Positions 2,927 to 35,289 of a DNA stretch of 64,000 bases are shown in pieces. Both the position numbers and the translations under genes were made by a program. The notes under the pieces were generated by a model. The model searched no databases. It saw only the letters and a program-made list of their open reading frames with translations, and was not told the origin of the DNA. Position 1 is the stretch's first letter. The number at the start of each line of letters is the position of its first letter. The DNA comes from Armatimonadota bacterium (GTDB taxonomy: Bacteria; Armatimonadota; Fimbriimonadia; Fimbriimonadales; Fimbriimonadaceae): NCBI GenBank assembly GCA_020438215.1, contig JAGQUX010000011.1, positions 1 through 64,000 of the forward strand, given 5' to 3'.

Positions 2927-3397
2927 ATGTCCGACGAAACCCAAGAGCCCAAAGAAGATTCACCGAAACCCAAAAAGCCGATGAGCCCCATGTTCCGCAA
3001 TATGATCATGGCGTTCCTCGCCATCATGCTCTTGCTGATCGTCCATGTGGCAGGAAATATCCGGGCGGCAGGCACCCAGCGCGCCGACCAACTGCGGATG
3101 ATCAACGCGATTGCTTCAACGCTCAATGATCCTGTTCTTCAGCGAGATACAGTCAAGCTCCGACGGATATGCGAAAACCTGGCTCAGCAAGGCGCGTTTG
3201 AGCGAGTGAGCATCACTCAAGTCAGTGGTGAAGTCATTGTCACCACCGACCGCACGAAAGAAGGCACAGTTTTGGAGCATTGTAAGAAAGCTCCCAACCA
3301 AGGGAAAATCGAGGAAGTCGATGGCCACCGGACGCTGGTGCGAAGCATCTTTGTTGCGGAAGACAACCCCATAGCCGCCATCGAGATCAAACTCTAA
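2927..3397 (+). CDS. Single-pass membrane protein, unknown function
   Basis: 156 residues, starting 3 nt after tsaD and so in its operon. A Lys/Pro-rich N-terminal segment (1-25) is followed by one transmembrane helix at about 29-46 and an outside domain of about 110 residues. That domain (loss-of-contact residues, alternating strands, Val-Ile-Val-Thr-Thr-Asp) looks vaguely like a small extracytoplasmic sensor (sCache-like) domain but has no signalling output domain. I do not recognise the family. Its 3' end overlaps the convergent recombinase gene by 4 nt. Confidence 0.6.
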   Translation: MSDETQEPKEDSPKPKKPMSPMFRNMIMAFLAIMLLLIVHVAGNIRAAGTQRADQLRMINAIASTLNDPVLQRDTVKLRRICENLAQQGAFERVSITQVSGEVIVTTDRTKEGTVLEHCKKAPNQGKIEEVDGHRTLVRSIFVAEDNPIAAIEIKL

Positions 3398-4293
3398 CGC
3401 CGCGGGTGAGCCTTGTCGTAATGCTCGCGCACAACATCCAGATCGAGCATTGTGTAAATCTGAGTTGTGCTGATGCTGGAGTGACCAAGAAGTTCCTGCA
3501 CAGCGCGTAAATCGGCCCCTCCACGCACCAGATGAACGGCGTAAGTATGCCGCAAGGTGTGTGGACTTACCGCTTGCCTCAGCCCAGCCTGGCGGCGATA
3601 CTGCTCAAAAATGTTGTACGCACTCTGACGGCTCAGTGGGCCACCCCTCGCGCCCAGGAAGACGTAGGCGTTAGCCCGCTTTGCAATCTGTGGTCTTGCT
3701 TCATTCAGGTAACGCTCTAACCAAGGTGCCGTGTGCATCGGAATAGGAACAAAACGAATCTTCCCGCGCTTCCCTTTCACTCGGAAAGCAGCTGCATCCA
3801 TATCCACTTCATCTGTACGGAGGTTGGTCGCTTCGCTCACGCGGAGGCCAGTCCCATAAACAAGCTCCATCAGCGTTCGATCCCTCAACCCAACTGGAGT
3901 CGCCAAATCAGGCGCATCCAACAATTTGAGAAGGTCATCAACGCTGAGAGCTTTGGGAAGACGCTTCGGAAGACGTATCCCCGCCGCAGAAGGGAGTGCC
4001 GTCTCTGGTCCTTCGCCATTCTTCTTGAGGAACTTGAGGAACGACCTCAACGCCGAAACGCGGCGTCGTGCGGTTGTTGGGGCATAGCCTTCGGCGGCAA
4101 AGTTCTGGAATTTGTTGAGATCTTCGGCGGTAAGAGCTTCCCAGCCGTTCCGCCCTCTTTGAGTAAAGAAATCCGCCGCGAGATGCAAATCTCGCTCATA
4201 GGAAGTCACCGTGTGTTCGCTCGCGCCCTTTTCGTGGATCAGGGCGTCGAGGTACCACTCGATGGCTTCTCGATAAGATCCTTTCTCTTCCAT
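3394..4293 (-). CDS. xerC: Tyrosine recombinase of the XerC/XerD family
   Basis: 299 residues, the standard Xer length. There is an N-terminal SAM-like DNA-binding domain (about 7-95) and a catalytic domain with the complete set Arg151 (Gly-Thr-Gly-Leu-Arg), Lys175, His245-x-x-Arg248, His271 and nucleophile Tyr280. It would resolve chromosome dimers at dif, or act as an orphan site-specific recombinase; sequence alone does not separate XerC from XerD. The ATG at 4293 lies 55 nt inside the end of the upstream glycosyltransferase gene, and no later start keeps the first helix, so the overlap seems real. No phage or integron genes are nearby, which favours a housekeeping role. Confidence 0.85.
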   Translation of the reverse strand: MEEKGSYREAIEWYLDALIHEKGASEHTVTSYERDLHLAADFFTQRGRNGWEALTAEDLNKFQNFAAEGYAPTTARRRVSALRSFLKFLKKNGEGPETALPSAAGIRLPKRLPKALSVDDLLKLLDAPDLATPVGLRDRTLMELVYGTGLRVSEATNLRTDEVDMDAAAFRVKGKRGKIRFVPIPMHTAPWLERYLNEARPQIAKRANAYVFLGARGGPLSRQSAYNIFEQYRRQAGLRQAVSPHTLRHTYAVHLVRGGADLRAVQELLGHSSISTTQIYTMLDLDVVREHYDKAHPRR

Positions 4294-28089: not shown

Positions 28090-28581
28090 ATGGCCTCTGA
28101 ATTTTCTTTTGATATTGTTTCGCAAGTCGATATGAACGAAGTCAAGAATGCGTTCAACACCGCGAATAAAGAGCTGATGAATCGCTACGATCTCAAAGGA
28201 ACCAAGTGCGAAATCGAGCTGGAAGACGACCACATCATGCTCACCGCTGACGACGACTTCCGTCTCACTCAGGTGTTCGACATCCTGTTCTCTAAGCTCG
28301 TCAAGCGCGAAGTGGATGCCCGCATGATCGTCAAAGAAGACCCTCAAGCCGCAGGCGGAATGACGATCAAGCAGAAAATCACTTTCAAGCAAGGTATTGA
28401 GCAAAGCCAAGCCAAAGACCTCAGCAAGAAGATCAAGGACGCCGGGACATCAGCAAAGTCTCAAGTGCAGGGTGATGCCGTGCGTGTGAGTAGCAAAAGC
28501 AAAGACGATCTCCAAAAGGTGATCAACTACGTCAAGGCACTCGATCTGCCATACGCCGTGAACTTCATCAACTACCGGTAA
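28090..28581 (+). CDS. yajQ: YajQ family nucleotide-binding protein
   Basis: 163 residues, the standard UPF0234 length. It opens Phe-Ser-Phe-Asp-Ile-Val-Ser, has Arg-Tyr-Asp-Leu-Lys-Gly-Thr, and ends with Leu-Pro-Tyr-Ala-Val-Asn-Phe-Ile-Asn-Tyr-Arg. Members bind nucleotides, in some species cyclic di-GMP. No partner gene is obvious here. Confidence 0.93.
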   Translation: MASEFSFDIVSQVDMNEVKNAFNTANKELMNRYDLKGTKCEIELEDDHIMLTADDDFRLTQVFDILFSKLVKREVDARMIVKEDPQAAGGMTIKQKITFKQGIEQSQAKDLSKKIKDAGTSAKSQVQGDAVRVSSKSKDDLQKVINYVKALDLPYAVNFINYR

Positions 28582-28612: not shown

Positions 28613-29182
28613 ATGCTGTCTGCAATCCTTGCCGCTAGCCTTGTGACGCAAGTCAAAACCGATATGATGTGCCCGGTCATGGCCAATCGCCCGACGACTG
28701 GTCGTATGGCGGTGGACTATGACGGTGCCCGCATTGCGGTGTGCTGTGATCAGTGCGTACGCACGGTTTGGAAGAACCCGGCTAAGTACGTCAAGGAAGC
28801 TACCAAAAGCGGACAAAACATCGGTTGGTTCTTATTTGATCCCCTCACCGGTCTCCGCATCGATGCAAAAGATGCAAAGTCGAATGTTGTCGTGAATGGC
28901 TTCTACTACTTCTCACGCACATCTGGTGCAGAAGAAAAATTGAAGGCATTCGCTACCTCTGATAAGCGCTCAACACAAAGCGAAATGCTGGACGCATGGG
29001 GCACAGACAAGGTCTTTGCCACACCCGGCCAAGCTGCCGCCTACGTCGATGGCGCAGGTTATCGCTTCTATCTCGCCGATGCGGCGGACAAAGAGAAGGT
29101 GCTTAAAGCACTGCCAACCATTCGCCTAGCTCCCAACCCCATTAAAGGCCACCCAGTTCCGGTTCCTGGCATCAAATGGTAG
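28613..29182 (+). CDS. Secreted YHS-like metal-binding protein
   Basis: 189 residues. A short hydrophobic start is followed by Cys-Pro-Val-Met near 20, Val-Asp-Tyr-Asp-Gly-Ala-Arg-Ile-Ala-Val, and Cys-Cys-Asp-Gln-Cys at about 44-48. That is the layout of YHS/TRASH metal-binding domains (Cys-Pro-Val ... Tyr ... Cys-Cys-x-x-Cys). The second half also looks like a NosL-type or Cu-handling segment (Phe-Tyr-Tyr, Gly-Gln-Ala-Ala-Ala-Tyr-Val) but is not diagnostic. A copper role is an inference. The last codons and stop lie inside repeat copy A (29172-29233), so its 3' end once overlapped the end of the convergent beta-lactamase gene. Confidence 0.6.
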   Translation: MLSAILAASLVTQVKTDMMCPVMANRPTTGRMAVDYDGARIAVCCDQCVRTVWKNPAKYVKEATKSGQNIGWFLFDPLTGLRIDAKDAKSNVVVNGFYYFSRTSGAEEKLKAFATSDKRSTQSEMLDAWGTDKVFATPGQAAAYVDGAGYRFYLADAADKEKVLKALPTIRLAPNPIKGHPVPVPGIKW

Positions 29183-29233
29183 TGCAGTCGGGCATAGAAA
29201 CAGAAGCCATTGGGTCGCGCGGCTCATAGCCGA
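29172..29233. repeat. Direct repeat copy A: orphan beta-lactamase 3' end
   Basis: This 62-bp segment matches 29854-29915 at 57 of 62 positions, offset 682 bp. Read on the minus strand it encodes the same C-terminal tail as the beta-lactamase, including the TGA stop, but it is detached from the gene. Four of five differences are synonymous in that frame; the fifth changes Gly to Cys. It also contains the stop codon of the plus-strand YHS-like gene. Confidence 0.9.
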
Positions 29234-29289
29234 CTTATCCAATCTTCATTAAACACTGACCAAGAATATTATTGCTTGAGAACCTTCAA

Positions 29290-29454
29290 CTACTGTTCTC
29301 TTTCTAATACCTCGATACGTTGTCGAAGCTCTTTAGTTTCCTCATACAGTCTGATGTTGGCGTTGTACAAATAGATCAGAAAGAAAGACAACATGAGAAA
29401 CCCAGCAAAAGAGCATACTGCCAATTGCAAACCTGTTGTCGCCTTATCTTTCAT
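29290..29454 (-). CDS. Small membrane protein with coiled-coil tail, cassette gene 3
   Basis: 54 codons from the ATG at 29454. There is one transmembrane helix at about 11-31, followed by a Glu/Arg/Leu heptad-like tail (Leu-Tyr-Glu-Glu-Thr-Lys-Glu-Leu-Arg-Gln-Arg-Ile-Glu-Val-Leu-Glu). The start overlaps the stop of the previous small gene by 11 nt, so the two are translationally coupled. Base composition is A/T-rich compared with neighbouring core genes. I do not recognise a family. It could be a subunit of a small membrane complex with the two upstream gene products. Confidence 0.55.
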   Translation of the reverse strand: MKDKATTGLQLAVCSFAGFLMLSFFLIYLYNANIRLYEETKELRQRIEVLEREQ

Positions 29455-29614
29455 GAATCAACTCCCTAACGGCTTGATTCCGAGCCTCAATATCTCCTTT
29501 TGAGTGATTCTCCATCATATTATTAAGCATCCAGACACCTATGCAACATGTAACAGCAACGATGAAGACTCCTATGTCTACAAGTAGAACAGAAGTCATT
29601 TTCTCCTTACTCAT
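29444..29614 (-). CDS. Small membrane protein, cassette gene 2
   Basis: 56 codons from the ATG at 29614. A lysine-bearing start precedes one long transmembrane helix at about 8-30, then a polar tail rich in Glu, Asn and Arg. Overlaps: 8 nt with the upstream small gene and 11 nt with the downstream one. An in-frame ATG at 29656 lies inside the upstream gene and gives a poorer N-terminus. Unknown function; its coupling to its neighbours is the strongest evidence that it is real. Confidence 0.55.
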   Translation of the reverse strand: MSKEKMTSVLLVDIGVFIVAVTCCIGVWMLNNMMENHSKGDIEARNQAVRELIHER

Positions 29615-29843
29615 GTGAGTCACCACGCAATATCCCTCGCAGTTCATACTCAGCATTCGAATACTCTCGCCAGTTTTCCATTGTCTGGAGAATCTGAAAC
29701 AGTGTTAGCATCCCAACGACGAAAGTTGCAATCCGGACACCAATAGAAGCTCTACTGTAACGCATCTCCCTAGATGTCATTATCTTAGTTCTTTCCACTC
29801 CTGCATCTTTAGAGCGTACCGCTAATTCTTTGTAATTACTCAT
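29607..29843 (-). CDS. Small membrane protein, cassette gene 1
   Basis: 78 codons from the ATG at 29843, 10 nt after the beta-lactamase stop, so it probably rides on that transcript. A charged N-terminal region (1-33, many Lys, Arg and Glu) is followed by one transmembrane helix at about 35-53 and a Glu/Arg-rich tail. An earlier in-frame ATG (29909) would start inside the beta-lactamase gene and the repeat; I consider it less likely. I do not recognise a family. It forms a run of three tiny overlapping membrane-protein genes between the two repeat copies. Confidence 0.55.
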   Translation of the reverse strand: MSNYKELAVRSKDAGVERTKIMTSREMRYSRASIGVRIATFVVGMLTLFQILQTMENWREYSNAEYELRGILRGDSHE

Positions 29844-29853
29844 CCCAGCTTCT

Positions 29854-29915
29854 TCAAATGGTAGTGCCGTCAGGCATAGAAACAGAAGCCATCGGATCAC
29901 GCGGCTCATAGCCGA
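29854..29915. repeat. Direct repeat copy B: current beta-lactamase 3' end
   Basis: This is the partner of copy A. It forms the real last 21 codons and stop of the beta-lactamase-like gene. It also retains, at its left end, the 11 bases that in copy A form the end of the YHS-like gene, showing that both copies descend from the same convergent-gene junction. Confidence 0.9.
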
Positions 29916-30810
29916 GTGACTTCAGTATCTCTGCCCCGAGGAACGACACCAGCTTCATATTGCTCCCTTTCGTCGTCATGATGGCGATGACGAGTTCCTT
30001 CCCGTCGGGCATGACCAGCCAGCAAAGATCGTGGCGTGTTGTGCCCGTCCAACCCGCTTTGGAATACAGCTTTGTTTCACTCGGAATGACCTTCCCAACA
30101 TAGGCCCGCGCCTGACCATCTGCTTTTTCAAAATCATCGGCGGGATTCGCACGGTGGAGCAAACTCTTCATCCATTCCGTCCGTTCTTCACTCCACAGCC
30201 GCCCAAAAGCGACATCCGTCATGAACTTCGCGCAGGCATCCGGTGAGAGCATGTTGCGGTTCGCATAGTCTTTCCCGAGCCACTGCATCTCCCGACCGTA
30301 GGGGCCTTCGTTGTACGTCCGCTGGACAGCATTGACGCCGCTGTAACCCTTGCTGGCAAACCACCGGTTCACTGCTTGTCGTCTCTCCCCGAAGTCCGCG
30401 AGTCCCTTAGCATCCAGCTCCGGGCCGGGAGTTGTTCCGCAGACAAGATCAATCATGTACCCGGTTGCATCATTGTTAGAGTTCACGATCATATCGTGGG
30501 CAGCACGTTGAGTTTCATCAGTAAGCTTCAATCTGCCTTCATCCATCAGATACGCGGCAAACCCAAGATAGAACACTTTCACCACGCTCGCCGGATACAT
30601 CGTCTGATCACCCCGCAGACTTCCCTTGTGATAGCTTTTCGCTTTACGATCCAGCACATGCAGAGTCATCAAGATGTCTTTGTCACCCAGTTCATCATCT
30701 TTGAACTCAATGCGTGCTTTTGCCTCTGCATCGCGAAGAATCTTGTCCAAATCCGCAGATTTTTCTTGCATCCCCATCATTCCGATCAAGGCCGCTGTTG
30801 CCGCCAACAT
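29854..30810 (-). CDS. Class A beta-lactamase-like serine hydrolase, exported
   Basis: 318 residues with a short signal-like start. The nucleophile motif Ser75-Val-Val-Lys78 sits at a helix start. The second motif is Ser111-Asn-Asn113 instead of Ser-Asp-Asn. The third is Lys251-Ala-Gly253 instead of Lys-Thr-Gly or Lys-Ser-Gly. The fold is therefore PBP/beta-lactamase, but two active-site motifs are altered. It may be a weak beta-lactamase, a carboxypeptidase-like enzyme or another serine hydrolase. The last 21 codons are repeat copy B, probably acquired with the small-gene cassette. It is divergent from the nitroreductase-family gene. Confidence 0.75.
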   Translation of the reverse strand: MLAATAALIGMMGMQEKSADLDKILRDAEAKARIEFKDDELGDKDILMTLHVLDRKAKSYHKGSLRGDQTMYPASVVKVFYLGFAAYLMDEGRLKLTDETQRAAHDMIVNSNNDATGYMIDLVCGTTPGPELDAKGLADFGERRQAVNRWFASKGYSGVNAVQRTYNEGPYGREMQWLGKDYANRNMLSPDACAKFMTDVAFGRLWSEERTEWMKSLLHRANPADDFEKADGQARAYVGKVIPSETKLYSKAGWTGTTRHDLCWLVMPDGKELVIAIMTTKGSNMKLVSFLGAEILKSLGYEPRDPMASVSMPDGTTI

Positions 30811-34266: not shown

Positions 34267-34632
34267 TCACCATTGGGTTGTCAAGGTGAAGTCGTTCATA
34301 TCAACGTAAATACTGCCATCAGGAGAAACATGAACCATATATTTCCCGTTCAAGTTCCTGTCCCGAAAATAGAAATCGCACCCCTCTCCAGGTACATAGA
34401 GCTGTCTAACAAAAAACATTTCTAGCTCTGATTTGTCTCTGAGAAATGACTCCATCGCCTCTTTCTCCTCAGGCGAATAATCAACGACTGGCCTTGTGCC
34501 GTCTCTCAAAAACTCAGTCAGCACGCTGAAGCACCTTTCTTTGAAATAGTCATTCTTGATCTTCTTGGCGTACAAGCCTATCGAAATTGCAAGAAGGATC
34601 GTGACGGACATCGCCCAGAGTTTGCACAGCAT
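34267..34632 (-). CDS. Membrane-anchored orphan protein, AT-rich
   Basis: 121 residues. One N-terminal helix (about 5-24), then a soluble part with Lys/Glu-rich helices and a C-terminal beta segment (Lys-Tyr-Met-Val-His-Val-Ser-Pro-Asp-Gly-Ser-Ile-Tyr-Val-Asp). AAGGTAAC just upstream supports the ATG at 34632. Base composition and codon use are more A/T-rich than the surrounding core genes, suggesting later acquisition. I recognise no family. Confidence 0.55.
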   Translation of the reverse strand: MLCKLWAMSVTILLAISIGLYAKKIKNDYFKERCFSVLTEFLRDGTRPVVDYSPEEKEAMESFLRDKSELEMFFVRQLYVPGEGCDFYFRDRNLNGKYMVHVSPDGSIYVDMNDFTLTTQW

Positions 34633-34704
34633 GAAGTTACCTTGTGTGGCAGAGACGATGAATATGGTGAGTTACACACACACAAAACGAATGTCAGGTT
34701 TTGC

Positions 34705-35289
34705 CTATTGTATGCTCTTTACAATTCTTTCCGGATCTAAAAGGTCATCCATAGAAACGAAAGTCATGATAATGTACTGATCATAAAAAATGCCGATACA
34801 CCGGAAGTAACCCTCACCCATTGGCAAGAAAATCCAGTTGTGTGTATCCGATTCCAGAATCCGAGGTTCAACGTACAGCCTCTTGTGGGTCAGTACAGTT
34901 AAAATTGTTTCAAACTCTTCAGCAAAAGTAGTATCAACAAAACCACCTTCCTCCGTGCTTGCTAGACCGGCAACATCCGAAGCTCTCCCAGAAGCAAATA
35001 TGAAAACTGAGCCGTTCTCATACTCAAATATATCCTTATTGTGCTCTTCAGTGCTTCTTCTAAAATCCGCAGGGATTTCAATACTGAGTTCCCTGTCTCC
35101 AATCTCAAAGACTTCCGTTACAAAGCGGGTTGCTTCCCTCTTATCGACTACCTGACTTGTCTCATCGCTTTTGTGTGAGGAAGCCCTTGACTGACACCCA
35201 GTCAGGCACCCACTCATCAAAGAGCATATACTGAGCATGACAAGAACGTTATAGCGGGTAGTGATTTTCATTTCAACATCAATAGACAT
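34705..35289 (-). CDS. Predicted lipoprotein, orphan, AT-rich
   Basis: 194 residues. The signal region ends in a lipobox-like Leu-Met-Ser-Gly-Cys28 (a second Cys follows at 32). The mature domain is mixed alpha/beta with Phe-Glu-Ile-Gly-Asp-Arg-Glu-Leu-Ser-Ile-Glu-Ile-Pro and resembles small secreted domains of unknown function. AGGAAA before the ATG at 35289 supports that start; an ATG at 35271 is possible. Like its neighbour at 34267 it is A/T-rich with different codon use. Confidence 0.55.
   Translation of the reverse strand: MSIDVEMKITTRYNVLVMLSICSLMSGCLTGCQSRASSHKSDETSQVVDKREATRFVTEVFEIGDRELSIEIPADFRRSTEEHNKDIFEYENGSVFIFASGRASDVAGLASTEEGGFVDTTFAEEFETILTVLTHKRLYVEPRILESDTHNWIFLPMGEGYFRCIGIFYDQYIIMTFVSMDDLLDPERIVKSIQ

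What the first reader, a model, noticed from the sequence alone, without database searches (positions are those of the whole stretch)
29172..29915. Small-protein cassette flanked by a duplicated beta-lactamase 3' end
A 62-bp direct repeat (29172-29233 and 29854-29915, 57 of 62 identical) brackets about 620 bp. Copy B is the living 3' end of the beta-lactamase-like gene; copy A is an orphan copy still touching the end of the YHS-like gene. Four of five differences are synonymous in the beta-lactamase frame, so the copies diverged while both were under coding selection. A drifting in-place duplication would not do this. The layout is that of an integrative unit that enters at a gene's 3' end and rebuilds it, like attL/attR, but no recombinase gene is inside. 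That points to a mini-element mobilised in trans, or to recombination through the conserved gene end.
Basis: partly seen in the sequence, partly recalled or inferred. Interest (0 to 1): 0.75.

Follow-up and report, generated by a model that had tools for sequence, protein, structure and literature searches.

The report
Foreign mini-operon inserted behind bla-like gene
Three tiny membrane-protein genes were inserted behind a beta-lactamase-like gene in a Fimbriimonadaceae bacterium, with a 62-base copy of that gene's end left on the far side; this is most likely an ordinary by-product of recombination with DNA from a close relative rather than a new mobile element.

Summary
A 62-bp direct repeat (57/62) brackets 620 bp, and it is the only such repeat in the window. 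The insert is foreign-looking (41% G+C against 52%) and holds three translationally coupled small membrane-protein genes that continue the bla-like operon; no homologues were found. Same-genus relatives carry neither insert, repeat nor YHS/bla junction. The synonymous-change argument is real but weak (P 0.05-0.08 for in-place drift, 0.60-0.68 if both copies were coding). The copies differ as sister-species bla alleles do. No attP-like match and no recombinase in the insert were found. A related case (G002 insert, 69-bp site in sister genome G004) carries pieces of both flanking gene ends. Best explanation: DNA from a related lineage, carrying its own bla end plus cassette, recombined through the bla end (single crossover, or homology at one end only), leaving the recipient's bla end as orphan copy A; such products are documented in E. 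coli. In-place duplication at insertion is the main rival; an integrase-mobilised mini-element is less likely. No second strain of this species was available to show an empty site.

The parts
28090..28581 (+). yajQ/DUF520 gene; in genus relatives where both lie on one contig it is about 50 kb from bla
   Evidence: Pfam DUF520 3.8e-56; positions in relatives
28613..29182 (+). YHS-like gene downstream of yajQ; its last 11 nt lie inside copy A. A yajQ-linked homologue occurs in G001 (C-terminus VPGVKFE against VPGIKW here)
29172..29233 (-). Copy A: orphan 62-bp copy of the bla-like gene's 3' end
29234..29853 (.). 620-bp A+T-rich insert (41% G+C)
29290..29454 (-). s1: 54-aa single-TM protein with charged C-terminal helix
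   Evidence: no homologue in 291 genomes of the phylum at E<=0.05
29444..29614 (-). s2: 56-aa single-TM protein; starts within the s3 stop (ATGAGTAA) and overlaps the s1 start (ATGAAAGATAA)
   Evidence: only E of about 0.003 or worse in the phylum
29607..29843 (-). s3: 78-aa single-TM protein; ATG 10 nt after the bla stop
   Evidence: no relatives
29854..29915 (-). Copy B: live 3' end of the bla-like gene
29854..30810 (-). Serine beta-lactamase-like enzyme (Beta-lactamase2 family), far below the class A equivalog cut-off
   Evidence: PF13354 1.7e-19; NF033103 26.6 bits, cut-off 200

Best explanation
A chromosome with the YHS-like gene converging on the bla-like gene (ends overlapping by 11 nt) took up DNA from a sister lineage whose bla-like gene was followed by the small operon s3-s2-s1. 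The incoming DNA recombined with the resident bla end, either as one crossover by a small circle or concatemer carrying a truncated bla end (Campbell-type insertion-duplication), or by homologous exchange at one end and illegitimate joining at 29233/29234 at the other. Either route gives YHS - resident bla end (copy A) - cassette - incoming bla end (copy B) - bla, with both host genes intact. The products are a bla operon extended by three small membrane proteins and an orphan 62-bp scar. Shown: repeat, insert, coding chain, foreign composition, sister-species-like divergence of the copies, absence from sampled relatives. Inferred: uptake, homologous exchange, identity of the donor, and the prior single-copy junction.
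For: Clean repeat boundaries and intact genes on both sides. Copies differ at 4/20 third and 1/40 other positions, like bla orthologues of sister genomes (G002/G004 26% and 4%; G005/G006 32% and 5-7%). At most one non-synonymous difference in five: P 0.60-0.68 if both copies were coding, 0.05-0.08 if copy A drifted. Lowest G+C in the window and a coupled three-gene chain. A sister-genome parallel: in G002, against a 69-bp site in G004, a 2.3-kb 39% G+C insert carries a decayed copy of the downstream gene's first ~100 bp followed by 18 bp (one mismatch) of the upstream gene's 3' end. Precedent: in E. coli, 56 of 60 integrants of an incoming plasmid gave the PCR product diagnostic of a partial lacZ-end duplication; 14 were sequenced (109-950 bp) and read as single crossovers of shortened circles (PMC3240628). 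The genome encodes a ComEC-family protein.
Against: No donor sequence and no second strain is known. The longest identical run between copies is only about 20 bp, short for RecA-type exchange, so the incoming homology must once have been longer or less diverged. The repeat includes the K-W-stop end of the YHS gene, which resembles G001's K-F-E end, so copy B may already contain YHS sequence, as in-place duplication predicts. In the G002 case the orphan is decayed (stops, indel), so it does not itself show coding-type divergence, and only 1 of 25 sister-genome insertions has a duplicated gene end.
Confidence: 0.5

Rival explanations
1. In-place duplication: the cassette entered the overlapping YHS/bla junction by break repair or template switching that duplicated 62 bp of target; only insertions duplicating the overlapped ends leave both genes intact, so this product survived selection. 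Copy A then drifted.
For: The repeat spans the ends of both genes, including the YHS K-W-stop end that resembles the G001 homologue; needs no donor allele.
Against: At most one non-synonymous difference in five is expected in only 5-8% of cases. It does not explain the operon-like 10-nt spacing between the bla stop and s3.
Confidence: 0.25
2. Non-autonomous integrative element using the bla 3' end as attB, mobilised in trans by a tyrosine recombinase; copies A and B are attL/attR-like.
For: Layout (gene 3' end rebuilt, direct core at both ends, cargo of small genes); five tyrosine-recombinase matches in the genome.
Against: Single copy in the genome; no cassette relatives; no attP-like core found; no convincing inverted repeats at the ends; the recombinase in this window (3394-4293) scores as Xer-type.
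Confidence: 0.1
3. Tandem duplication of the bla region followed by deletion of most of the first copy, leaving its last 62 bp, with the cassette coming from the neighbourhood of the second copy.
For: Would also let both copies diverge as coding sequence; the neighbourhood is rearranged relative to the genus.
Against: No trace of further duplicated material; needs two events and still does not explain the foreign composition.
Confidence: 0.1
4. Chimeric contig joining two strain variants in a draft assembly.
For: The assembly is draft (119 contigs) and the copies look like alleles.
Against: The junction at 29233/29234 has no shared sequence on which an assembler could switch; completeness 99.4%, contamination 0.3%.
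Confidence: 0.05

Closest known systems
Single-crossover (Campbell-type) insertion-duplication, and homology-facilitated illegitimate recombination (PMC3240628)
   Same: Foreign DNA flanked by direct copies of part of a gene end; 109-950 bp in the sequenced E. coli integrants, 62 bp here
   Different: Natural event in an uncharacterised bacterium; donor unknown; the E. coli precedent used a designed plasmid
Cis-mobilizable elements (CIMEs) and other recombinase-less integrative elements with attL/attR
   Same: Direct core repeats, gene 3' end rebuilt, no recombinase inside
   Different: No evidence of att-site features, recurrence or mobility
Insert in G002 upstream of the MAKWQNF gene (same genus)
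   Same: A+T-rich orphan genes with copies of the neighbouring gene ends; sister genome G004 has a 69-bp site
   Different: The 5' end is duplicated; two cassettes separated by pieces of both neighbours; orphan copy is decayed

Membership tests
Insertion-duplication by recombination at a gene end | Non-homologous DNA flanked by direct copies of part of a resident gene end | tested here: met
Insertion-duplication by recombination at a gene end | One copy derives from a donor allele | tested here: inconclusive
   Divergence pattern fits sister-species alleles; donor not found
Insertion-duplication by recombination at a gene end | Empty single-copy site in a close strain | not testable with these tools
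   One genome per species is held; genus relatives lack the YHS/bla junction
Integrative element with attL/attR (CIME-like) | Direct core repeat at both ends, rebuilding a gene 3' end | tested here: met
Integrative element with attL/attR (CIME-like) | Same element or core found at other sites or in other genomes | tested here: not met
Integrative element with attL/attR (CIME-like) | Excision as a circle by a recombinase | not testable with these tools
   needs cells or reads
Transposon / insertion sequence | Terminal inverted repeats and a transposase | tested here: not met
   No terminal inverted repeats; the three ORFs match no family confidently
Integron gene cassette | Imperfect-palindrome attC site after the gene | tested here: not met
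   The repeat is bla coding sequence with only a 5-bp hairpin at one end

The most novel reading that the evidence does not exclude
The cassette is a mini-element without its own recombinase that targets bla-like gene ends in Fimbriimonadaceae and carries donor-derived gene ends, moved by a host tyrosine recombinase; gene-end duplications such as the one in G002 would be the same class.
Probability: 0.07. Interest if true: 0.65.

Novelty: new member of a known kind. Interest (0 to 1): 0.3.

Why it matters
It is a readable scar of additive gene gain: both host genes survive, a foreign mini-operon joins an existing operon, and the leftover gene end records the resident allele. Comparable scars in sister genomes could show how small orphan genes enter streamlined chromosomes without mobile-element machinery. 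The three small membrane proteins behind a serine hydrolase are an untested functional lead.

Tried and rejected
Extension of the repeat beyond 62 bp: none. Further copies in the genome: none. Cassette relatives in family or phylum genomes, viral contigs, plasmids and phages: none convincing. attP-like core: none. Trace of bla at the other end of the rearrangement, where the gene that abuts bla in most genus relatives now faces an NAD-synthetase-like gene: none. General rule that insertions in the genus duplicate gene ends: rejected; of 25 clean insertions between sister genomes, five share direct similarity with their flanks (control 3 of 600 mispaired sites), one with a duplicated gene end, one with an intergenic repeat, the other three weaker (61-74% identity) and not examined further beyond the PEP-CTERM-like paralogues seen in G006. 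A small gene behind bla in G001 has no bracketing repeat. RNA family: none.

Full report
Observation. The 62-bp direct repeat at 29172-29233 and 29854-29915 is real (57/62) and stands alone in the window. Beyond 62 bp the sequences are unrelated. In the bla frame four differences are synonymous and one changes Gly to Cys.

Insert. The 620 bp between the copies have 41% G+C against 52% (sd 2.4 points) for the window, lower than every stepped 620-bp window. On the minus strand three genes follow bla: s3 starts 10 nt after the bla stop, s2 overlaps the s3 stop (ATGAGTAA) and s1 overlaps the s2 stop (ATGAAAGATAA). No shuffle of 5000 gave such a chain. Each protein has one hydrophobic stretch. No confident family match was found in Pfam, PHROGs, PADLOC or NCBIfam. 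No convincing relatives were found: s3 was searched in the family's genomes, viral contigs, plasmids and phages, s2 and s1 in the phylum's genomes and viral contigs. The insert occurs once in the genome.

Surroundings. In G002-G006 the bla-like gene (51-59% identity) converges with a sugar-isomerase-like gene, the stop codons overlapping by 4 bp, and yajQ lies about 50 kb away in a layout that fits an inversion ending just behind bla. In G001 yajQ is followed by a YHS homologue ending VPGVKFE, against VPGIKW here. So the YHS/bla junction looks like a derived, lineage-specific breakpoint, and the K-aromatic end of YHS is probably native. That suggests the 11-nt overlap existed before the duplication, but the alternative that bla's own end supplied it is not excluded.

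The synonymous argument. Simulation conditioned on five differences gives at most one non-synonymous codon difference in 5-8% of cases when copy A drifts and copy B is selected, 1-2% when both drift, and 60-68% when both are selected. This favours two coding histories about 8- to 11-fold; it does not exclude in-place drift. Position-wise divergence (20% third, 2.5% other) resembles sister-species bla orthologues (26%/4%; 32%/5-7%).

Parallel case. In G002 a 2.3-kb, 39% G+C insert faces a 69-bp site in sister genome G004. It holds a PIN_8-domain gene, then a decayed copy of the first ~100 bp of the downstream gene followed by 18 bp (one mismatch) of the upstream gene's 3' end, then a second orphan gene. 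That order is what stacking two alleles of one site by recombination would give. Among 25 clean insertions in about 0.47 Mb of aligned sister genomes this is the only duplicated gene end identified, so the process is occasional.

Mechanism. Partial gene-end duplication beside inserted DNA is a documented product of single crossovers by shortened circles in E. coli (PMC3240628: diagnostic PCR product in 56 of 60 clones; 14 sequenced, duplications of 109-950 bp), and one-ended homology with illegitimate joining is known from natural transformation (same paper). The genome has a ComEC-family gene. The best reading is recombination of incoming sister-lineage DNA through the bla end. In-place duplication at insertion is the chief rival. 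A trans-mobilised mini-element fits the layout but has no supporting recurrence.

Limits. Only one genome per species was available, so neither the empty site nor the donor could be shown. The function of s1-s3 is unknown; co-expression with the serine hydrolase is the natural inference from gene order.

Noticed in passing
window 34267-35289: A second A+T-rich patch (about 43% G+C) with two orphan ORFs (121 and 194 aa, minus strand) between genes that are neighbours in G001-G006; no long repeat at its edges.
   Followed up: partly
L089:15763-18059 (G002 C1 525764-528059): 2.3-kb insert with a PIN_8-domain gene and a 227-aa orphan gene separated by pieces of both neighbouring genes; site of 69 bp in G004.
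   Followed up: yes
G005 C2 about 424171-428677 (L185): 4.5-kb insert relative to G006 with a Zot-like ATPase ORF and a 26-bp end repeat resembling a dif site: possible filamentous prophage at dif.
   Followed up: no
G002 C1 about 825274-825864 (L195): 591-bp insert relative to G004, with a DUF559-like ORF, bracketed by a palindromic CTCCCTCCCCAAGC repeat that also occurs at other sites.
   Followed up: partly
L140:17020-17055 (G000 C41): The 3' ends of an NAD-synthetase-like gene and the isomerase-like gene share an 11-bp duplication (AGATTACTAAA) at their convergent junction.
   Followed up: no
L075:6522-6962: In G001 an unrelated 146-aa gene with two predicted TM stretches starts 7 nt after the bla stop, so bla's 3' side has gained a small membrane-protein gene there too.
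   Followed up: partly
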